Virus record (IMG/VR): IMGVR_UViG_3300042448_000406
Coordinates: 1-22,445 of that record
DNA: 22,445 nucleotides
Source: a virus
Reading direction: 5' to 3' (one strand)
Positions 12,281 to 22,267 of the stretch are shown piece by piece (position 1 is the first letter of the stretch; the number at the start of each line of letters is the position of its first letter). The notes below the pieces were generated by a model that worked only from the letters and a program-made list of their open reading frames with translations, ran no database searches and was not told the origin of the DNA. A program made the position numbers and the translations under genes.

Positions 12281-12532
12281 ATGCCACGCGACTACAAGAA
12301 AGAGTACGCCAACTACCAAGGCAAACCCGACCAAATTGCCAACCGTGCAAAGCGCAACGCTGCCCGCTCTGAGATGGAAAAGAAGGGTGTGGTGTCCAAG
12401 GGTGACGGCAAGGACGTCGACCACAAGACGCCTATTGCCAAAGGCGGCGGCAACGGATCAGGCAATCTGCGTGCAGTGCCCAAGTCCGAAAACCGCTCCT
12501 TTGCCCGGACCAAGTCGGCCCGGATGAAGTAA
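12281..12532 (+). CDS. Small HNH-type protein, 83 aa
   Basis: The ATG follows GAGGA with a six-base gap. The protein is very basic and carries one compact HNH-like core: DVDHKTPIAKGGGNGSGNLR (D47-H48, N62) followed by VPKSENRSF (N71). The D-H...GG...NL-R...NR order is that of HNH nucleases, and phages often encode such minimal forms near packaging or replication genes. It lacks the CxxC pairs that stabilise many HNH domains, and at 83 residues it is near the lower limit, so it may need a partner. It is the last plus-strand gene; its TAA directly abuts the stop of the opposite gene. Confidence 0.75.
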   Translation: MPRDYKKEYANYQGKPDQIANRAKRNAARSEMEKKGVVSKGDGKDVDHKTPIAKGGGNGSGNLRAVPKSENRSFARTKSARMK

Positions 12533-13102: not shown

Positions 13103-13357
13103 TCAGCACTTCCATGCACGAAGCGATTTGTTGATGCGGCTGTTGGGGTCTTTGGCGGTCTTGGCGCTGGTCAGCTTCTCTTTCATACCCTCCATGCGGG
13201 CACAGAACGAGTCGCGTCGTGGGCCACCCTCGGGTTGAGGAGCCTTGAGCCCCGGCTTGCCGGGGTTCGCCTTGTTGTAAGACGCACGCCCCTTGGCGTT
13301 GAGCCCGCCCTTTTCGGACTTGCCTTCTTTGCGTGTCCACGCTGGTGTCTTTGCCAT
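13103..13357 (-). CDS. Conserved small basic phage protein with SFCARM motif, 84 aa
   Basis: The ATG at 13357 is preferred because AGGAG is seven bases upstream; GTG at 13360 is only four bases from it. The ATG shares one base with the stop of the giant gene. The sequence starts MAKTPAWTRKEGKSEKGGLN, continues AKGRASYNKANPGKPGLKAP and has a conserved RRDSFCARMEGMKEKL block, ending INKSLRAWKC. AW-RKEGK-KGGLN-KGRASYN and SFCARM-GM, with a final W-C, are marks of a phage family of unknown function. Two cysteines are far apart. The gene contains a GC-rich inverted repeat (13250-13265) that also encodes NPGKPG. Confidence 0.8.
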   Translation of the reverse strand: MAKTPAWTRKEGKSEKGGLNAKGRASYNKANPGKPGLKAPQPEGGPRRDSFCARMEGMKEKLTSAKTAKDPNSRINKSLRAWKC

Positions 13358-16300
13358 CACTCTTCTCCTCTGGCTTTCGCCAACGCTTGTTGCATACGAT
13401 CTCGCAGGTCGTCGAGCTCTCTGTCCAGTGCCTCGTAGTCGGGGTAGCCTTTGCGGTACTCCTCACGCTTGGCCTTGGTCATTGCAGCCTTGTAGTCCTT
13501 CTTGATGTCCTTGAGCTCTTTGCTCTTGTAGAACGCAGCCTCGTCGACGTTGAACTGGTACAGGCCAAGTCCACCCAGTGTGCGTGCCAAGAACATAGAG
13601 CTCTTTTCGACACCTGTGGGGCCCATGGCACCGTCCTTCAGCTGACCGATCTGATCCCAGAACTTGGTCGTAACAACTGGCGGTGCCATTGTGTTGTATG
13701 CAGCCTTGCCTGTATTCACCAGCTTATCCCACTCTGTGTCTGTGGGGGCGTGCATGGGCTTGCCTGTGAAGGGGTCGTATCCGTTCATGGCGGAGATAAG
13801 CGTGACCAGTGGACCACCGGGACTGGCGAAACCGGGCAACCACGACTGACCTGCAAATGGAGACTCACCCGGCGCAGGCTGGAACAGCGACAGGAACGGG
13901 AGATACTTGCCGACGTTGAGGTAGGTTGGGTTCTGGTCATCACCAACAAATGGGATGCGCATGTGCATGTATGGGCCGAGGCCAAACAGCGAACGCTCAC
14001 GCAAATAGTCTGGCCCTTTCTTGCGCAGCTCATCATCTTCTTCCCCACCCAGCGCAGCTTGCATCAGCATCACCGATGCCATCATGTTAACAATGGCCCA
14101 AGGCTTGGTAACGGCGATACGACCGAGCACTGGCATGATCGCGTACGACCACGACACAAACGGTAGGAATGTCTGCCGAGCAGCGCGGATAGCACGAGCG
14201 TCGATGTCGTAGTCCAAGAACATTTTGCGAGAGGCCAGACCGATTTCTTCAAGTTGCTTGGCGTCGAGTTGTTTGGTGCCGTCGCGCAACTGTACGTTGC
14301 CAGCGGTTTCTAAGAACGCGGCAAAGCGGAACACGTTGTCTTCTGCTGCGTATATCTCTACAGCGTTGTCTTTCCAACCTGTCAACTTGGCTTTGGTCTG
14401 CTCAAACGCTGCCATAGAGGTCATGCGCTTAATGTATGACTGGTCGCTGGTGGGGGTGATGGACTCAGACAGGCGGTCGTAAACGCTGCCCTTGAGCTCA
14501 GAGTTTGTGAACTGGCCAAGCACAGCACCAGAGTTAAAGAACGCTTGCATCAGTGCGCGATCAGCGTCGGTCATTGAATCAGGGTTGCGCTCGAAGTTGG
14601 CGTACATACCTGCAGCGCGTTTGAGCGTGCCGAGGCGGATGCCGTGAAGAATCAACAGCGCGACGTTTGACAATACGTTGGTGACGTGCGTGCCGGGGTT
14701 CAGGACAGTCTTGGACTGCTTGAAAAACGCCATCAGTTCGTTGAACGACTTGAAGTTAACCGCTGGCGAGCGATCGTGCATGTCGATCATGGCATTCCAC
14801 ACAGGGCCCGGGATGATCTTCCCAGCAAGAGCTCCGTAGGTTGTGCCTTGTGGCAGCTGCACCCATGTGCCAGTGCGCTGTGTTTGCCAGCGCAGAGACT
14901 GCGACTTGGAAGCCTCGTCAGATACCTGCAGCACGTTGTTGAGTTCGAGCTTGCGATCGCCAAACACTTCGTTAATCTCGTCGACACTGTCAAAGGCAAC
15001 GGCTTCTGCTGTAGGCTTATCACCCTCACGACCAATAGAAGCAAGGTTGCCGAAGTACGTTGTGGCAGCATGCGCGTGAGCCAGCGCAGCCGTGGTGTTG
15101 ACCAGCGCCAGTGCAAGGTCTTCGCTCTTCAGGTTTTTCAAAGCATCCCGCGTGGTAATGCTGGATGAGAATTCAAAGTTGCCTTTGTCGGTGTCGTACT
15201 TTGAGAACTTCCAGATGCGTTTGGACTTGGAGTCAACTGCTGTACCTGAAGGTGTAACGCCGGTTTTGTCATACTGCGCTTTAGAAATAAAGCCAGCGGG
15301 CAGTCCCTTTTTGCCGAGCTTGTCTTCAAACAACTGATAGAGCAGTTGGTCTTGGTCGACAATACCCTCTGTGGTATCGAGGAACTGCTCGAACGCTTCG
15401 AGCGACTGATGCTGCTGTGTCTTCACGCCGACCATACTGGCGATCTTGCCAGCGCTGAGCGTAGAGCCTGCGACCTGACTGATGCTGGTGGGGTTGATGA
15501 TGTACTGCGTGAACGGCATGCTCTCAAAGGCACGGCGCTCTTTGGAGTTCGCAGGCAGTGTGCTGATGTACTGCTGCATCAAGCCTTTGAGGTTGTCAGC
15601 AATGGCCTTGAACCCAGAGGCGTTCTCGATGCCAGCAAACGCTTTAGTGTTGCCGTCCATGTAGTCCAAGAATGGCTCACGCAGCTCAGGACGAGCAGCG
15701 ATGGTGGTTGCAATCTTCTCCATCTGCAAATGGCCAGTCTGGGCCAAGAACTTGTAGTTGTCAATCGCTGCCACAGTGACAGGAGAGTTGCTAAAGTTCG
15801 AGTTAAACTGCATGATGACGCGCTCAAGCGTCGGCACTTCCTTGCGGATGTAGTTCGCCAGCTTCGCGCCGTTCTTTGCAATGCTTGCTGTAAGCGGCAG
15901 GTCTTTGCCATTGACGCGACCAAGGCCAACGAGCTCAAACACAAGCTGTGTGGGTGTCTTGAACTTACCGGGACCGTTGGCGAATGCAGTGGCGTCAGCA
16001 AAGCCGACCTGCTGCGCAGCAGCGTCGATCGTCGGCGCGGTCGTGGGGTCGATAGACTGCACTGTAGCTTTTAGGATTTTGCCGGTGGCTTTTCCAGTCT
16101 GCTGGGTTTCAGCGGCCTGCTGAAGCAAGCGGAAGCTGCCCATGAGCACGTCGCTGGCTACTGAGTCCTTGACACCCAACATGCGGCGCACGGTAGCCAG
16201 TATCATGTTCCAGACGTCCTTGGCAGCTTGCACGAATGACGTGGGAGTACCTTTGGATGGCATAGCTTCCAACGCCTTGCGGAACTCGACCAGCGTGTTG

Positions 16301-19300
16301 CCATAGGAAATCAGTTCCAGCACAGCGTCCAGTTCGCGTTTACCTGCGACCAGATCGGCCAGCACCTTCTGCACTTCAGCGGCTTTCTCGCTGAGTTTGG
16401 CAGTGTCGTACTTTACAACTTGATTCACCGCTTTAAGCAACTGACGAACAACCGGGTCTTTTGGGTTGCTGTGCACAAACCATTGCAAGGCGGCATGCAA
16501 CGCCTCATGCAACGCAACTTCTGGAGAAGCTGTAGGTGACATGGTCACCGTGTTGTTCTTTGGATTGAACTGTGACTTACCCTCGGCGAAGACAACCTTC
16601 GGTGGGTTCTTAGTGTTCTTGAAAACTTCGGACACGGCCTTGGCAATCATGCGCTCGAACGGTGTGCCACTGCTGCGGATGTAGTTCAGCACGCCTTGGA
16701 AGCCAGTGTCGGCCTTGGTGTACTTGTTGACCGCGTAGCCGTACTTGGCAGCACGCTCCAGCGGCTGCTCGAAGCCTTGTTGCTGTTCTTCTTTTGACGT
16801 GCGGACTTCGCCGCCACGAACATCCAGAACGTCTTTGCCAGTGCGGAACGTACCACGTTTAGCAGCGGCCCAGCCTTGCGACAGGCCGAGGTCGAGCTTT
16901 TCAAGGGCTTTGATTTCTGCCGCGATTTCAGCAGCACGGGCACCCATCTCTTCGTCTATGGTGACATTGCTCTCGCGCTCGGTATCATCCTGCATCTCGC
17001 CAAGGGTTCCAAGTTCACGGTCGAGTTCCGCTTTGCGGGCAGCGATCTTGTCTTTGTTCAGGCGGATCAGAGCTTCGACGTTCTTGGCCGAGTTGCCAGC
17101 GGCTTGACCTAGCGCAGTCAATGCGGTTTGCACATCGCGCCAAGACTTCTCGACGTTGGCAACGCTCTCACCTGCGCGGGCCTCAGCTTGTGCCTGTTCT
17201 CCTTTTTGTGGGAATTTCTTGGTGGACTTGAGCGTGGTGCGGCTCTCGGACGGCACCATGTTGCCAGCGGCGTTCAGGTACTTGCCGTAGGCTTCGCCAA
17301 AGGCGCGAGCGGCTTGCGCCAGTTTGCCACCCTGCTCGTCACGGCTCTTTTTGCCAGTCAGGAACGCATCGCGGGCTGCACCAAGAACTTTGGCTGCAAA
17401 CGTGGGACGACCGCCGACGTTAATGCGTCCGCCTTGGACAGAAGCGTTAAGATTCTCAGCGGCACCACCTAGAATTGGGCGGAGACCCAGCTCGTCAATA
17501 GTTTTCTGCGCACTCGCATCATCTTCTTCTACGACTTGGGCTGCAGGGGCTGCTGGTGCTTTCGCTCGCTGCGTTTCTGCTTTGACGGCTTGAGGGGCTT
17601 GAGTGCCACTGGGTTCTCCGGTAGTTGCGGTAGAAGAAACACCCGCTGCAGGTTGTGCAGCGGGCAAAGCGGCGGCAACTGCAGTTGGAGCGCCGACAGG
17701 AGTAACGGGGGTGCCGCTGCGTTGAGCTGCGCGGTCGATTGTGCGCTGGACTACGGCGGAAATACTTGCGCGTTCTGCGTCAGTCTCAGCAATACCGAAG
17801 ATGGCGTTGGCCTGCTTAACGATACGGTTCTCGTCGGCAGTCAGGGTGACACCAGCAGGGACTGTGGGCAATGCCGACCGAGAGATGTCAGGACCAGCAA
17901 GAGCAGCTTGTTGCGCAGGCGTCAGTTCACCCGACACTGGGCGTGGTACATCTGGACCAGCAAGAGCGGCCTGTTGAGCAGGCGTCAGTTCACCCGACAC
18001 TGGGCGTGGAATATCAGGGCCAGCGAGAGCGGCCTGTTGGCCGGGGGTCAACTCACCCGACACTGGACTCGGCGCAGTCTGTGGGCCACGAAGTGCCTGT
18101 TGTTGCAGCGGTGTAAGCGCGGCTGCGCCACCTGTGATTGGCTGCGGAACATTGGTGGGCCCTTCAAGCGCAGCTTGCCGCATTGGGGTCATGCCCGGTA
18201 TCTGTGGGCCGAGCAGAGCTTCACGCTGCATGGGTGTTAGGCCAGCTGCGCCACCTGTGACCGGGCGCGGTGCGTTAGGGCCAGCCAATGCCAAACGCTG
18301 CATGTCTGTGAGTTCACCAGTGACTGGGCGTCCAGCAGACTGTGCCAAATCAATCTCGGATACTGGTGTAAATGCTTCGTCGCCCAGTGGTGCTGGGCGA
18401 CGACTCTGAATGTCTTGCAAGCGCTGGGCAGCTTGCTGGGGAGTCATCAAGACGTTGCTGCCACCAGTCAGGTCGGTTTCGCCTTCTGCGCCTGTGGAGG
18501 GCTGGTCTGAGGTGATGGTGCCGTCTGGCTGGATGGTGACTGTGGGCTCTGCTGGGCGCGTACCGGCGAGCGTAGACAAGCCAGCACGCACAGTGCCGCC
18601 GCCCAAGAAGCCCTTAGCACCTGCAACACCGTACTCGTTCAAGGCCTCTGGGCTTGTCAGATCAGCAGTCTGTCCGGTAACACCGTAGCGCTCCAGACCA
18701 GTCTGCGGCAACTCAGTAATGGCTTCTTCCAAACCACCACGGACAAACTGTTTAGCAGCGTTCTTTGTAAAGCCTGTGCCAGCTGCACGGGCGAGGAACT
18801 CGGTGCCTTCGCCAGCCACACGCAGGGCTACACGTTCAGCACCACCGAAACGTTCCAGCAGCGCCGCAGGGATGGTAACTGCCAGTGCGCGACCACGCTC
18901 GTCAATGCCTTGTTCACGCTGTCCCGTGCGAACGCCACCGTATGTCTGCACTGCAGTAGGGAGGAGGCCACCGACAAAGCCACCAACAGCAGCGCCAATA
19001 GGGCCAGCGACGAGGCCACCGCCAATAGCACCCAGTGCACGACCACCCAAGGCCAAGCCCACTTGCGGGGCTACTTCGCCGACAGCTTCTCGTGCAGTTG
19101 TAAAGGGGCGGGACAGAACATCGTCAAACGTCTGAATCTCGCTGGGGTTACGTCGTACAACGTCAGCACCATACTGCTCGACTGCACCGCCTACGCCTTC
19201 AGCACCAAGGTCACGCAGCGTAGAACCAGCACCAGACACGAATTGCCCAGACGCACGCCGTATATCAGACATGAGTCCGGGGGCGTTGGGGCGCTCTGTG

Positions 19301-19437
19301 GGCTCTGGCGTAGCTGGCGCATAGTACGACAAAGGCTTGAGGCGGCTGTATCTTGTAGGGTCAAACTTGTTCTCGGTGGGTTCACCACTGCTAGTACCTG
19401 CACTACCCTTGCCGTAGTAACCGTCGAGAATGCCCAT
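13357..19437 (-). CDS. Giant polyvalent/ejection-type virion protein with HExxH protease motif
   Basis: A 2026-residue protein, preceded by AAGGA. Residues 126-168 are Gly/Ala-rich and hydrophobic, able to insert in a membrane. Residues 370-519 are seven repeats built on P-V-S/T-G-x-LTPxQQxAL-x-GP, followed by an Ala/Pro-rich linker. A coiled-coil region (about 740-860) precedes PEVALHEALHAAL with H977-E978-x2-H981, a zincin zinc-protease motif. The C-terminal half has VLNPGTHVTNVLSNVALL (near 1580) and later hydrophobic stretches, resembling large polyvalent-protein regions (LPD38-like, from memory), and ends in a charged coiled coil. Its rank after 316- and 613-residue proteins parallels T7 gp14-15-16, so I infer a protein packaged in the capsid and ejected with DNA. 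No lytic transglycosylase motif of the T7 gp16 kind was found. Antisense frames over it are shadows. Confidence 0.88.
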   Translation of the reverse strand: MGILDGYYGKGSAGTSSGEPTENKFDPTRYSRLKPLSYYAPATPEPTERPNAPGLMSDIRRASGQFVSGAGSTLRDLGAEGVGGAVEQYGADVVRRNPSEIQTFDDVLSRPFTTAREAVGEVAPQVGLALGGRALGAIGGGLVAGPIGAAVGGFVGGLLPTAVQTYGGVRTGQREQGIDERGRALAVTIPAALLERFGGAERVALRVAGEGTEFLARAAGTGFTKNAAKQFVRGGLEEAITELPQTGLERYGVTGQTADLTSPEALNEYGVAGAKGFLGGGTVRAGLSTLAGTRPAEPTVTIQPDGTITSDQPSTGAEGETDLTGGSNVLMTPQQAAQRLQDIQSRRPAPLGDEAFTPVSEIDLAQSAGRPVTGELTDMQRLALAGPNAPRPVTGGAAGLTPMQREALLGPQIPGMTPMRQAALEGPTNVPQPITGGAAALTPLQQQALRGPQTAPSPVSGELTPGQQAALAGPDIPRPVSGELTPAQQAALAGPDVPRPVSGELTPAQQAALAGPDISRSALPTVPAGVTLTADENRIVKQANAIFGIAETDAERASISAVVQRTIDRAAQRSGTPVTPVGAPTAVAAALPAAQPAAGVSSTATTGEPSGTQAPQAVKAETQRAKAPAAPAAQVVEEDDASAQKTIDELGLRPILGGAAENLNASVQGGRINVGGRPTFAAKVLGAARDAFLTGKKSRDEQGGKLAQAARAFGEAYGKYLNAAGNMVPSESRTTLKSTKKFPQKGEQAQAEARAGESVANVEKSWRDVQTALTALGQAAGNSAKNVEALIRLNKDKIAARKAELDRELGTLGEMQDDTERESNVTIDEEMGARAAEIAAEIKALEKLDLGLSQGWAAAKRGTFRTGKDVLDVRGGEVRTSKEEQQQGFEQPLERAAKYGYAVNKYTKADTGFQGVLNYIRSSGTPFERMIAKAVSEVFKNTKNPPKVVFAEGKSQFNPKNNTVTMSPTASPEVALHEALHAALQWFVHSNPKDPVVRQLLKAVNQVVKYDTAKLSEKAAEVQKVLADLVAGKRELDAVLELISYGNTLVEFRKALEAMPSKGTPTSFVQAAKDVWNMILATVRRMLGVKDSVASDVLMGSFRLLQQAAETQQTGKATGKILKATVQSIDPTTAPTIDAAAQQVGFADATAFANGPGKFKTPTQLVFELVGLGRVNGKDLPLTASIAKNGAKLANYIRKEVPTLERVIMQFNSNFSNSPVTVAAIDNYKFLAQTGHLQMEKIATTIAARPELREPFLDYMDGNTKAFAGIENASGFKAIADNLKGLMQQYISTLPANSKERRAFESMPFTQYIINPTSISQVAGSTLSAGKIASMVGVKTQQHQSLEAFEQFLDTTEGIVDQDQLLYQLFEDKLGKKGLPAGFISKAQYDKTGVTPSGTAVDSKSKRIWKFSKYDTDKGNFEFSSSITTRDALKNLKSEDLALALVNTTAALAHAHAATTYFGNLASIGREGDKPTAEAVAFDSVDEINEVFGDRKLELNNVLQVSDEASKSQSLRWQTQRTGTWVQLPQGTTYGALAGKIIPGPVWNAMIDMHDRSPAVNFKSFNELMAFFKQSKTVLNPGTHVTNVLSNVALLILHGIRLGTLKRAAGMYANFERNPDSMTDADRALMQAFFNSGAVLGQFTNSELKGSVYDRLSESITPTSDQSYIKRMTSMAAFEQTKAKLTGWKDNAVEIYAAEDNVFRFAAFLETAGNVQLRDGTKQLDAKQLEEIGLASRKMFLDYDIDARAIRAARQTFLPFVSWSYAIMPVLGRIAVTKPWAIVNMMASVMLMQAALGGEEDDELRKKGPDYLRERSLFGLGPYMHMRIPFVGDDQNPTYLNVGKYLPFLSLFQPAPGESPFAGQSWLPGFASPGGPLVTLISAMNGYDPFTGKPMHAPTDTEWDKLVNTGKAAYNTMAPPVVTTKFWDQIGQLKDGAMGPTGVEKSSMFLARTLGGLGLYQFNVDEAAFYKSKELKDIKKDYKAAMTKAKREEYRKGYPDYEALDRELDDLRDRMQQALAKARGEE
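17881..18330 (-). repeat. Seven degenerate tandem repeats inside the giant protein gene
   Basis: Units of mostly 63 bases (21 residues, ranging 17-25) encode residues 370-519. The three C-terminal units (17891-17953, 17954-18016, 18017-18079) are closest; the first two differ at about six of 63 bases. The older units have drifted and carry GGAA insertions. The encoded core is LTPxQQxAL-x-GP. Recent duplication at one end and drift at the other suggests active expansion by slippage or unequal recombination. Confidence 0.9.
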
Positions 19438-19472: not shown

Positions 19473-21314
19473 TTACCGGATGTTGCGCTCTATGGCTTGG
19501 AGTTCAATTGCTTGGTCTCTAGGTAATTGCGTGCGTACGCTATTGTATTTGCGACTTAACTCTACAGGGGTAAGCGCCTTTGCGTCAGATGCGAACTCCG
19601 TAGCCAGTATGCGTTGTGCTTGTGATGCAAGACGCGCACTCTCGGCCTGTGTAGCTACAACCTGCTCTCGTGCTTCTAGCGCTTTGGCTGCACGACTACC
19701 TGCTGGTGGAACATACGGCACTGGCTGTGCACCATTTGTAAGGCCTCTGGTCGGCTGTGACTGCGTGGCCGAAGGCGCAGCAGCAGCACTTGCGGGCATC
19801 TTCACTCCGGCCTCAACAAACAAGGGAGCCAATGCTGCGTCTGTGTAGCCAAGTTCAGTCTTGAGGTACGTGACAAGCTGTGGCAGGTTACCTTTTTTGG
19901 CTTCGTCCTTGATGCCGCTTACGATTTCAGTCTGGTCACGGGAGGCCTGTTTGGTCTTGCCAAAATCTGCAAACACTTTATCGACTCGCGCAAGGCCTTC
20001 TTCTGCTTTTAGCGTACCTTCCTTGACAGCGGACGTAATTACATCCAGTTGTGCCTTGAGCCGTGGGGAGTCAGCTTTGTCTAACCCGCCCAGCGACTCA
20101 ATCATGGCGGGGGTTACGTTGACCCCCAGACGTTTGAGGCCCGCCACATTTTTTTCGAGCGGGCTAGTTTTGTCCTGCTCAGCTTGACGCTTTTCAGTAC
20201 GTTCTTGCAGGTTAAACCGTTTCAAGTCCAGATTGTTCTTAAATTCGTTCTGGCTATAGTTGTACAACGCCATAGGGTCTTTGAACGAGTTCAGCGCAGC
20301 GAGCAACTCGTTTGCGCCACCCTTAATTACCTTGTCAGGCATGGGTTCACCATCGTCTCGCACACGAGAAACTGTAATGGCACCTGTCTTGGGGTCAGTC
20401 TTCATGCCCGTTACTTTTGCGCCGTCTAACACGTATCGGTCATAAAACGCTACAGCAGGAGTAAGGTCGCCCGCAGCGATGGCAGCTGCCACAGCGCCCA
20501 GTTGAGAGTTACGTTGCGTCTCATCGAGCTTGATCTGGTTGACCGCAAAGCCTTGGTAATCCTTCAGAGACTCTGTAGCTTCTTTGGCAAGACCGGCTTT
20601 TTGCAAAGCTGTTGCGCGGTACTGCAGCGCCGCGATGTTGTCATCCATCGTAGGTTGGCGAGGCTCATTAGTAGCTGGGTCAATAAGCCTGTTAGCCTGC
20701 CACTTACCAACTTCAGTGTCGACATCCTCAAGTTTCTTTGTCCGCACTTGGTTGCGGTTCATCTCAGTAATTTGGCCTTCTGTCAAAAGACCTTGCCGCT
20801 GCATTTGTGCTTCTTGCTCAGGGCGAATGCGGGCTTGATACGCCTGCTCGTCCATCTCACGGCGCATACGCATTGCAGCCACAGGGTCACGCTCGGCGAT
20901 CACATTGGCAGCGGCAGCATAACGAGCGGTATCAATTTCCTGCTGCGTTGGCATGCGGCTAAAAGTCTGACCGCCAAGGCCATACTGGGTGCCTCCAACG
21001 CTCTGGCCTACATAGGGCATCTGAGGAGCGACTGAAGCATCTAAGGGTCTTTCCGCAGGGTTGCTCGAAAAAAGACCTGTACGGTTTTGTACCGAGTCCA
21101 CTGTGGCAAAATCTCTTGCGTCTTGGTCGGCAATTGATTGTGTGTAAGCCTGTGCGCGACCTAGCTCATCTTGGGTAGCTGGACGAGGCGCAATCTCTTG
21201 GGGTGTGAGCCCCATGGCTTCGCGCAGACGTTTGCGTTCCTGATCTTCCTCGCGCATCTTGAGACCGCGCTCGACGGCGGAAGCACCTACTTGAAAGCCT
21301 GCTGCGAATCCCAT
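19473..21314 (-). CDS. Helical structural-type protein, probable ejection protein, 613 aa
   Basis: The ATG at 21314 follows GGAGG; the stop lies 35 bases before the giant gene. The N-terminus MGFAAGFQVGASAVERGLKM is a small-residue amphipathic segment, a start often seen in phage virion proteins. The rest is almost entirely predicted helix rich in Ala, Gln, Glu, Arg (for instance AMRMRREMDEQAYQARIRPE), with a Pro/Ala linker near 500-545 and a helical C-terminus. No enzyme motif is visible. A tape-measure role is unlikely at this length without long hydrophobic repeats. Size and place, between an S74 protein and a giant protein, resemble T7 gp15, so an internal virion/ejection role is inferred with moderate confidence. 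Confidence 0.8.
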   Translation of the reverse strand: MGFAAGFQVGASAVERGLKMREEDQERKRLREAMGLTPQEIAPRPATQDELGRAQAYTQSIADQDARDFATVDSVQNRTGLFSSNPAERPLDASVAPQMPYVGQSVGGTQYGLGGQTFSRMPTQQEIDTARYAAAANVIAERDPVAAMRMRREMDEQAYQARIRPEQEAQMQRQGLLTEGQITEMNRNQVRTKKLEDVDTEVGKWQANRLIDPATNEPRQPTMDDNIAALQYRATALQKAGLAKEATESLKDYQGFAVNQIKLDETQRNSQLGAVAAAIAAGDLTPAVAFYDRYVLDGAKVTGMKTDPKTGAITVSRVRDDGEPMPDKVIKGGANELLAALNSFKDPMALYNYSQNEFKNNLDLKRFNLQERTEKRQAEQDKTSPLEKNVAGLKRLGVNVTPAMIESLGGLDKADSPRLKAQLDVITSAVKEGTLKAEEGLARVDKVFADFGKTKQASRDQTEIVSGIKDEAKKGNLPQLVTYLKTELGYTDAALAPLFVEAGVKMPASAAAAPSATQSQPTRGLTNGAQPVPYVPPAGSRAAKALEAREQVVATQAESARLASQAQRILATEFASDAKALTPVELSRKYNSVRTQLPRDQAIELQAIERNIR

Positions 21315-21316
21315 GA

Positions 21317-22267
21317 TTAAACCTCCACCATTTCGATGCCGAGACCGGCGTAGTTGACTGCCTTGTAGCCGTCTGGCATGTCAAAGACCATGTCAGGGAA
21401 TTTCTGCTCGACGTCGTCTGCCATGACACCCAAGAAACGGCGACCTGAACCGTTGATGTACTCGAACTCATACAGTGGCAGCATTGTGCGCTCATCACGA
21501 CCAACCAGCTCAATGTTTTCCTTGAGGCGGCGGTCAGAGAACTTGAGTGCGGCTGTTGTACCAGCGCCCACCAAAGCACCGGTGACTTCAGCTTCGGCTG
21601 CTTGGCCAGCGTTAAATTGGCTTACTTGGTTGCTAAGAATACCGCCGTACGTCTGGCCAGCCTGACCCATACCCTGCATGTACTGACCGCCCGGAGCCAT
21701 TGAGGTGTTGAGGCCCGCAGACCCTGCGCTAGTAGCGCCTCCATAAGCAGCATTTGCGGCACCAGCAAGACCACGGCCAAGGCCTGTAACTTCGAGGCGA
21801 CGTGCATAGCCCATCTGCTCAGCTTGGCTTCGCGCACTGGTTTGGGCACCAGCACTAGCAGAAGCCAGTCGCAGTGCGTTGGCGTTCATGTTTGAAATGG
21901 CAGCGCCCGAGTTGGGGTTGATACCACGGCGAGCCATCTCACGATTGCTTTGGCCCTGAGCACCTTGGAACGCTTGCTGCACATCAGCGGCTGCTCTTTG
22001 TGCCATCTGCGACCGGTAAGCCTCAGTATTAAAATTCTCCGCGTCCCTGACCAGCCCCTGCTCAAGCGGTCGGAACGTATTTACGTTGTAGTCGTAGTAT
22101 TCCTTTGCCTGCTGCATTTGCTGTTGTTGCGCTGCTATCTGTTGATTAGCAATACCTTGCGCCAAAGGCTTCATTTCAGCGTACTGCATCTTGGCAAAGT
22201 CGAGCTGTTCCCGGCCAAGCTGCTGCATTGGCCCGTAGTCGGGTGCTGGTTGCGATTTACCGCCCAT
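21317..22267 (-). CDS. Virion-type protein with C-terminal S74 self-cleaving chaperone domain
   Basis: A 316-residue protein with AAGGAG six bases before its ATG. Residues 1-110 are Gln-rich helix (QQLGREQLDFAKMQYAEMKP, QQIAAQQQQMQQAKEYYDYN). About 150-230 is Gly/Ala/Ser-rich and flexible. Residues 244-316 form a Peptidase_S74 intramolecular chaperone: SDRRLKENI (catalytic S244-D245 dyad), LYEFEYINGSGRRFLGVMAD, then YKAVNYAGLGIEM. In the known family, this domain trimerises, helps folding of the preceding part and cuts itself off at the serine. Cleavage would remove about 73 residues. S74 usually ends tail fibres and spikes, but here the N-terminal part is not beta-helical, and the next genes are ejection-type. 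It may be a small internal or tail-tip protein. Confidence 0.85.
   Translation of the reverse strand: MGGKSQPAPDYGPMQQLGREQLDFAKMQYAEMKPLAQGIANQQIAAQQQQMQQAKEYYDYNVNTFRPLEQGLVRDAENFNTEAYRSQMAQRAAADVQQAFQGAQGQSNREMARRGINPNSGAAISNMNANALRLASASAGAQTSARSQAEQMGYARRLEVTGLGRGLAGAANAAYGGATSAGSAGLNTSMAPGGQYMQGMGQAGQTYGGILSNQVSQFNAGQAAEAEVTGALVGAGTTAALKFSDRRLKENIELVGRDERTMLPLYEFEYINGSGRRFLGVMADDVEQKFPDMVFDMPDGYKAVNYAGLGIEMVEV

What the first reader, a model, noticed from the sequence alone, without database searches (positions are those of the whole stretch)
13357..19437. 2026-residue late protein with membrane segment, repeats, HExxH protease motif and polyvalent-like C-terminus
The HEALH motif sits in a zincin-like context (strand, then VALHEALHAAL). 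If ejected with the DNA, it would deliver a protease and other domains into the host at the first moment of infection, as proposed for polyvalent proteins. This is the strongest candidate in the window for a poorly described system: a multi-domain injected effector in place of T7 gp16.
Basis: partly seen in the sequence, partly recalled or inferred. Interest (0 to 1): 0.7.

Follow-up and report, generated by a model that had tools for sequence, protein, structure and literature searches.

The report
Giant ejected phage protein with protease
This gene most likely encodes a giant protein that a short-tailed phage packs in its particle and shoots into the bacterium with its DNA; it carries a strictly conserved zinc-protease-like domain and, in some relatives, a swappable toxin-like enzyme domain, and it belongs to a kind of protein already described in other phages.

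Summary
The 2026-aa ORF (13357-19437, minus strand) is real and its HEALH (977-981) is not chance. Relatives were found on 80 IMG/VR contigs (45 representatives with the window's own). All 40 representatives that cover the domain keep H977, E978, H981 and E1041; 5 are cut by contig ends. The model of 880-1118 (pLDDT 84) is zincin-like; its best structural match is the C1 domain of the N4 virion RNA polymerase (Z 9.8; profile E 5.7e-12). The C-terminal half matches the C-terminal region of the DarB-like virion giant of Bcep22-like podophages (E 9.6e-8) and, weakly, N4 C2. The 316-aa neighbour matches BcepIL02 gp66 (E 2.2e-15) and the gene order is similar; in phage JC1 of that group the giant was found in virions. 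An ART-PolyVal cassette precedes the C-terminal module in 13 of 44 relatives and changed state at least 11 times; the zincin was not lost in any sampled relative. No RNA polymerase domain was detected. Verdict: a polyvalent-type, probably ejected giant without RNAP, with a core protease-like domain and exchangeable cargo. The kind is known since 2017; the variant is new. 'Membrane segment' is weak; 'in place of T7 gp16' only partly apt.

The parts
13357..19437 (-). giant ORF, 2026 aa, last gene of the minus-strand late block in the window, convergent with replication-type genes
   Evidence: relatives on 80 IMG/VR contigs
18949..19062 (-). Gly/Ala-rich hydrophobic stretch, residues 126-163; membrane role unproven
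   Evidence: hydropathy 1.70, not above shuffles
17890..18312 (-). LTPxQQxALxGP repeats, about residues 376-516, linker-like
16084..16800 (-). zincin-like metallopeptidase domain, residues 880-1118 as modelled
16495..16509 (-). HEALH motif, H977 E978 H981
   Evidence: 40 of 40 representatives; 83 of 83 uncut ORFs, duplicates included, hold HExxH there
16315..16317 (-). E1041, candidate third zinc ligand in ELDAVLELxSYG
   Evidence: 40 of 40
16057..16101 (-). junction (residues 1113-1127) where some relatives carry the ART-PolyVal cassette; empty here
13360..16083 (-). C-terminal module, residues 1119-2026
13918..14751 (-). part of the C-terminal module (residues 1563-1840) that matches the C-terminal region of BcepIL02 gp70 and four relatives
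   Evidence: 94.3%, E 9.6e-8, 0 of 60 column shuffles as high
19473..21314 (-). 613-aa protein, likely second virion/ejection protein, by position only
   Evidence: only the first 23 profile positions match BcepIL02 gp69, P 0.001; no match to single N4 or T7 sequences
21317..22267 (-). 316-aa virion protein (PHROG 8003), relative of BcepIL02 gp66
   Evidence: 98.5%, E 2.2e-15

Best explanation
The protein is a giant virion protein of a short-tailed phage, ejected with the DNA, of the polyvalent kind. Its C-terminal module (residues 1119-2026) is the shared part that gets the giant packaged and delivered. The zincin just before it (880-1118) is an active zinc protease whose main task is to work on the giant itself or on its delivery partners, most likely cutting the delivered chain so that the N-terminal part and any cassette (ART in some relatives) are set free in the host. 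The ART domain of those relatives is exchangeable cargo that modifies host proteins; the window's copy lacks it. Shown: gene, conservation, fold resemblance, homology of parts, similar gene order. Inferred: presence in the virion, ejection, zinc binding, proteolysis, cis cutting.
For: H977, E978, H981, E1041 invariant in 40 of 40 representatives. Zincin-like model; top structural match N4 gp50 residues 2124-2364, Z 9.8, every other entry under 5; profile match to N4 C1 97.5%, E 5.7e-12, reversed control 0.1%. C-terminal module against the C-terminal region of BcepIL02 gp70 and four relatives: E 9.6e-8, score 73.9 against at most 25.8 in 60 shuffles. Neighbours: a protein upstream in the relative L002 matches BcepIL02 gp63 (31.8%), the 316-aa family matches gp66, L004 has an acyltransferase with the same label as gp65. 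In JC1 virions mass spectrometry found the giant gp69 (51 unique peptides), gp64 and gp68 (9 each) (PMC9144972, passages). ART-PolyVal in 11 of 40 N-terminal parts and 13 of 44 tree rows, at least 11 changes, zincin present in all 40 that cover it.
Against: No virion or activity data for this phage. N4 vRNAP is packaged uncut (PMC5512222 passage) and recombinant gp50 showed no evidence of degradation (PMC12633501 passage, seen), so cutting would need a trigger. Two Vibrio relatives of the gp70 C-terminal region show no HExxH in the stretch fetched (L120, L121), so the zincin is not needed wherever that module occurs. With the single gp70 sequence instead of five rows the C-terminal match was not significant (P 0.21). 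The 613-aa neighbour has no convincing homologue. The C-terminal model was poor (pLDDT 54). BcepIL02 has genes (gp67, gp68) between the counterparts that I did not see here.
Confidence: 0.55

Rival explanations
1. The zincin is itself the effector: after delivery it cuts one or more host proteins (restriction, envelope or transcription factors).
For: Weak profile resemblance to Tox-MPTase4 in 16 of 40 relatives, best E 8.8e-4; low-Z structural resemblance to other zincins such as IrrE (3.6) and ArdC (2.7); the 2017 survey lists this option.
Against: An effector under arms-race pressure would be expected to come and go as ART does (at least 11 changes); the zincin is kept in 40 of 40 at its place before the C-terminal module. 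This is an argument from pattern, not a test.
Confidence: 0.25
2. The domain is a structural or packaging domain that keeps a zinc site but does little proteolysis; it is needed to encapsidate the giant.
For: The N4 region that holds the zincin is reported as required for encapsidation while the chain stays uncut (PMC5512222 passage).
Against: The catalytic-type E978 is as invariant as the two histidines, which a purely structural zinc site would not demand.
Confidence: 0.15
3. The protein is not delivered: it works in the late infected cell, for example in assembly.
For: No direct virion data here.
Against: Similar gene order with, and C-terminal homology to, a giant detected in JC1 virions; zincin homology to the ejected N4 vRNAP.
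Confidence: 0.05

Closest known systems
Phage N4 virion RNA polymerase gp50 (Schitoviridae)
   Same: zincin C1 followed by a large C-terminal domain that ends the protein; last gene of its late block, convergent with the genes beyond it; one HExxH, at 2228; C1 fold and profile match
   Different: no RNAP domain detected: PF21769 in 3 of 3 N4-like controls and 0 of 17 family records; PF00940 in 2 of 2 controls, in another gene than the vRNAP, and 0 of 17 family records; C2 similarity weak (P 0.012 whole, 0.0025 for a core chosen after inspection)
DarB-like giant gp70 of Burkholderia phage BcepIL02 / gp69 of JC1 (Bcep22-like, Lessievirus)
   Same: similar gene order, relative of the 316-aa neighbour, homologous C-terminal region; HExxH ends 1,045 residues before the C-terminus in both (my arithmetic)
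   Different: 2026 against 4667 aa; the DC1 record names transglycosylase, helicase and methylase parts, none matched here; LPD38 found in gp70 but in 0 of 17 family records; zincin match modest (P 0.002, 0 of 60 shuffles)
Polyvalent proteins (Iyer et al. 2017, PMC5512222; passages read)
   Same: zincin MPTase, ART-PolyVal in relatives, phage late-gene setting, LPD-like C-terminal part
   Different: no match of three family queries in the named phage collection (near records may be left out there); gain and loss of ART at one place measured here
T7 gp16 internal virion protein
   Same: giant at the end of a run of likely virion genes
   Different: no profile match (low sensitivity) and no transglycosylase domain

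Membership tests
zincin-like metallopeptidase | HExxH in a helix after a short beta sheet | tested here: met
   model strands 68-71, 77-79, 84-87, helix 93-111 holding residues 98-102 = HEALH; invariant 40 of 40
zincin-like metallopeptidase | conserved Glu in a second helix after HExxH | tested here: met
   E1041 invariant 40 of 40, in model helix 156-165; geometry not measured. In N4-like rows a simple NEx pattern was found in 8 of 15
zincin-like metallopeptidase | zinc binding and proteolysis | not testable with these tools
   needs purified protein
N4 virion RNA polymerase | single-subunit RNAP domain in the chain | tested here: not met
   no RNAP family among the Pfam families shown for the window protein and relatives (one search shows 25 of 28 families and covers the parts before the C-terminal module); PF21769 0 of 17 records, 3 of 3 controls
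N4 virion RNA polymerase | C1 zincin domain | tested here: met
N4 virion RNA polymerase | C2 domain | tested here: inconclusive
   colinear motifs, core P 0.0025, 0 of 100 shuffles, but the core was chosen after inspection; whole P 0.012
polyvalent proteins | several unrelated enzymatic domains in one chain | tested here: inconclusive
   met in relatives: zincin plus ART-PolyVal; in the window copy the zincin is the only enzymatic domain recognised
polyvalent proteins | phage late-gene (packaging/structural) setting | tested here: met
polyvalent proteins | delivered to the host with the DNA | not testable with these tools
   indirect only: JC1 virion proteomics of the giant in the matching place
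LPD38 | match to PF18857 over its cut-off | tested here: not met
   0 of 17 family records at E up to 5; BcepIL02 2.9e-39. Profile homology to the gp70 C-terminal region, which overlaps the start of LPD38, is a separate result
T7 gp16 with transglycosylase | lytic transglycosylase domain | tested here: not met
   no such Pfam match at E up to 1
ART-PolyVal | PF18760 match | tested here: not met
   absent from the window protein; present in 11 of 40 relatives' N-terminal parts, in L004 and L005 (2 of 5) and in L025 and L065

The most novel reading that the evidence does not exclude
The block 'zincin plus roughly 1,000-residue C-terminal module' is a general delivery-and-release unit for giant ejected proteins, onto which phages hang different N-terminal cargo: an RNA polymerase in N4, DarB-like enzymes in Bcep22-like phages, ART or nothing recognisable here. 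If so, the C-terminal domain of N4 vRNAP, which a 2025 preprint shows to repress transcription in vitro and otherwise leaves unexplained, is first of all a delivery device, and its zincin cuts cargo free after entry. In favour: our C-terminal module matches gp70's (E 9.6e-8) and N4 C2 shows a weak match to the same gp70 region (P 0.0015). Against: N4 C1 against the gp70 profile is not significant (P 0.07), two Vibrio relatives lack HExxH, and the reported transcription effect gives the N4 domain another role.
Probability: 0.35. Interest if true: 0.75.

Novelty: new variant of a known kind. Interest (0 to 1): 0.5.

Why it matters
The 2025 N4 preprint calls the vRNAP C-terminal domain a domain of unknown function, reports that it represses transcription in vitro, and says its specific role in early transcription remains unknown (PMC12633501, passages and discussion). 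A family that keeps the zincin and a related C-terminal module without any detectable RNAP separates that part from transcription and points to packaging, ejection or cargo release. The contrast between a protease-like domain kept in every sampled relative and an ART cassette that flips at one place makes a clear test possible: mutate the catalytic Glu and look for uncut giant in the infected cell.

Tried and rejected
Pfam and PHROGs on the single protein gave nothing usable. tblastn of the whole protein, of a relative's C-terminal part and of a divergent relative's N-terminal part found nothing in the named phage collection; an ART-bearing relative matched there in 16 records, the places listed lying in or near its ART part. 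The one genome-contig scan found no relative among 37 pattern matches; a second was allowed and not used. PDB sequence search: nothing significant. Plain Foldseek against PDB: no match with E under 0.001; the N4 match came from the VIA second look. Foldseek against viral models: two matches under 0.001, both large phage proteins. The C-terminal model was too poor, and its second-look search found no Z of 8 or more; I spent the job on 24 sequences before the wider set was at hand. Profile comparison of the two neighbours with single N4 gp51/gp52 and T7 gp14/15/16 sequences: nothing. PF00940 rang in none of the 14 named control genomes, so N4 and Pollock served as controls. A paper on Poorviridae (PMC11654794, passages) concerns a virus said to have the virion RNAP, so it is not this family. 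The first ART labels were wrong for three rows: L035 has no ART, L025 and L065 do (confirmed by Pfam); corrected with L036 left out as unknown. Rows dropped: in A2, L001 and L003 as duplicates, L005, L006, L019, L024 and L025 as cut fragments, and L008 as the window itself; in A6, 2 of 45 representatives with under 800 aa of the C-terminal module. The simple NEx pattern for the third ligand matched 8 of 15 N4-like rows. Rfam found nothing in the window.

Full report
What is there. The window is a 22,445-base virus record. The finding is one open frame, minus strand 13357-19437, 2026 aa. Upstream on the same strand lie a 613-aa and a 316-aa protein. The 316-aa one matches PHROG 8003 'virion structural protein' (7.9e-41) and PHROG 4287 'DNA ejection protein' (1.2e-12); the second match covers residues 202-313, so it may rest on the S74 chaperone domain found at 244-294. 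The plus strand, convergent, carries a primase/helicase relative (988 aa) and a DNA polymerase I relative (612 aa).

Family. IMG/VR scans gave 7, then 27, then 79 loci, overlapping; in the last, 112 stretches encode a relative and the best 80 were kept. One hundred ORFs match the C-terminal profile; they come from 80 contigs plus the window's own record, 19 contigs having been fetched twice (my count). At under 90% identity there are 45 representatives, the window's own among them; 40 cover the zincin and 5 are cut before it by contig ends. In 40 of 40, P959, T963, S971, L976, H977, E978, H981, Q985, P992, V997, A1019, A1038, L1040, E1041, Y1045, T1048 and a few more are invariant. The 40 were taken as those holding HExxH inside the profile match, but no uncut ORF was lost by that: 83 of 83, duplicates included, hold it.

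Zincin. The model of residues 880-1118 (22 sequences, pLDDT 83.9, pTM 0.79) has three short strands, the HEALH helix and a later helix with E1041. VIA-align 2 put N4 gp50 residues 2124-2364 first, in two entries (Z 9.8, rmsd 3.6-3.9, 183 residues); every other row is under Z 5. Plain Foldseek had no significant PDB match, and the tool warns that middling Z is common, so I tested by sequence: N4 gp50 has exactly one HExxH, at 2228, in register, and the profiles match at 97.5%, E 5.7e-12 for this one comparison, against 0.1% for the reversed control. The 15 N4-like rows examined (of 451 records that matched the N4 C-terminal part) all hold an HExxH. Pfam's Tox-MPTase4 matches weakly in 16 of 40 relatives, best 8.8e-4.

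C-terminal module. Against N4 C2 the whole profile gives P 0.012 and a core chosen after inspection P 0.0025, with 0 of 100 column shuffles as high: suggestive only. Against BcepIL02 gp70 alone it gives P 0.21. Against a five-row profile of the gp70 C-terminal region (gp70, DC1, two Vibrio phages, one Bacteroides phage) it gives 94.3%, E 9.6e-8, score 73.9 against at most 25.8 in 60 shuffles. N4 C2 against the same profile: P 0.0015; N4 C1: P 0.07. BcepIL02 gp70 carries LPD38 (6.1e-37), but LPD38 itself matches 0 of 17 records of our family.

Setting. A protein encoded upstream in the relative L002 matches the internal virion protein of Bcep22-like podophages (BcepIL02 gp63, 31.8%). In BcepIL02 the order is gp63, gp64, acyltransferase gp65, virion gp66, gp67, gp68, virion gp69, giant gp70, then two genes on the other strand. 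Ours is similar but shorter: L004 has tail fibre, an unassigned gene, acyltransferase, the 250-aa counterpart of the 316-aa protein, a 601-aa protein and the giant; nothing was seen in place of gp67 and gp68. The 316-aa family matches gp66 (98.5%, E 2.2e-15); the 613-aa family matches gp69 only over 23 positions at its start (P 0.001). In JC1, of the same group, mass spectrometry of purified virions found the giant gp69 with 51 unique peptides, and gp64 and gp68 with 9 each (PMC9144972, passages and table). That JC1 gp64 and gp68 correspond to BcepIL02 gp66 and gp69 I infer from order and size.

Cargo. ART-PolyVal (PF18760) is found in 11 of 40 N-terminal parts (best 1.3e-24). In the 11 rows whose spacer I aligned it sits between zincin and C-terminal module; in L025 and L065, which are cut, it directly precedes that module (Pfam 9.5e-10 and 1.2e-8). 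On a tree of 45 C-terminal modules with corrected labels (44 rows, 13 with ART, L036 left out) at least 11 changes are needed; shuffled labels need 11.4 on average, so ART is as good as scattered. L004, with ART, is 93% identical to the window in the C-terminal module. By my reading of the alignment the Tyr of the described ART site is kept in 3 of 11 cassettes and is Phe in 8 (site from PMC5512222 passage), so not all may be active.

No polymerase found. The N4 vRNAP family PF21769 matches in 3 of 3 N4-like controls and in 0 of 17 records of this family. PF00940 matches in N4 and Pollock, in a gene other than the vRNAP, and in 0 of 17. Eight of the 17 records are 58-61 kb, but their completeness is not known, and the others are shorter.

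Mechanism. The protease-like domain is kept without exception in the sample, next to the delivery module, while the ART comes and goes. I read this as a core function, most likely release of cargo from the delivered chain, with effector and structural roles as rivals. Against it: N4 vRNAP is reported as packaged uncut (PMC5512222, passage), recombinant full-length gp50 was seen without evidence of degradation (PMC12633501, passage), and the N4 C-terminal domain is reported to repress transcription in vitro (same preprint, discussion). Cutting would then need a trigger such as entry or refolding.

Novelty. The 2017 survey already named N4's zincin, its ART fusions and the autoprocessing idea (passages); the 2025 preprint names HExxH in C1 (passage). 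I saw no description of this RNAP-less family in the listings of searches (open-licence papers only; of the papers listed I looked into four, by passages or single sections). The viral model library already lists a relative (53% identity over the matched columns) as 'large polyvalent protein associated domain-containing protein'. Hence: new variant of a known kind.

Noticed in passing
window 21386-21538 (-): The 316-aa virion protein ends in an S74 intramolecular chaperone domain; the 250-aa counterpart in L004 (5339-6088) has no Pfam match, so this tail seems to be gained or lost.
   Followed up: partly
L002 7929-14426, L004 7917-14891: Close relatives of the window protein carry another insert of roughly 150 residues near residue 640, to which I could assign no Pfam family: perhaps a second cassette site.
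   Followed up: no
L035 7536-8033: The spacer between zincin and C-terminal module is about 140 residues longer than usual but has no Pfam match, ART included: possibly a different cassette.
   Followed up: partly
L120, L121: Two Vibrio phage giants related to the BcepIL02 gp70 C-terminal region show no HExxH in the stretch fetched.
   Followed up: no
window 12281-12532 (+): An 83-aa ORF with an HNH-endonuclease-like look (by reading only).
   Followed up: no
L004 4859-5335: An acyl-CoA N-acyltransferase gene (PHROG 4470) sits in the virion block, as gp65, with the same label, does in BcepIL02.
   Followed up: partly
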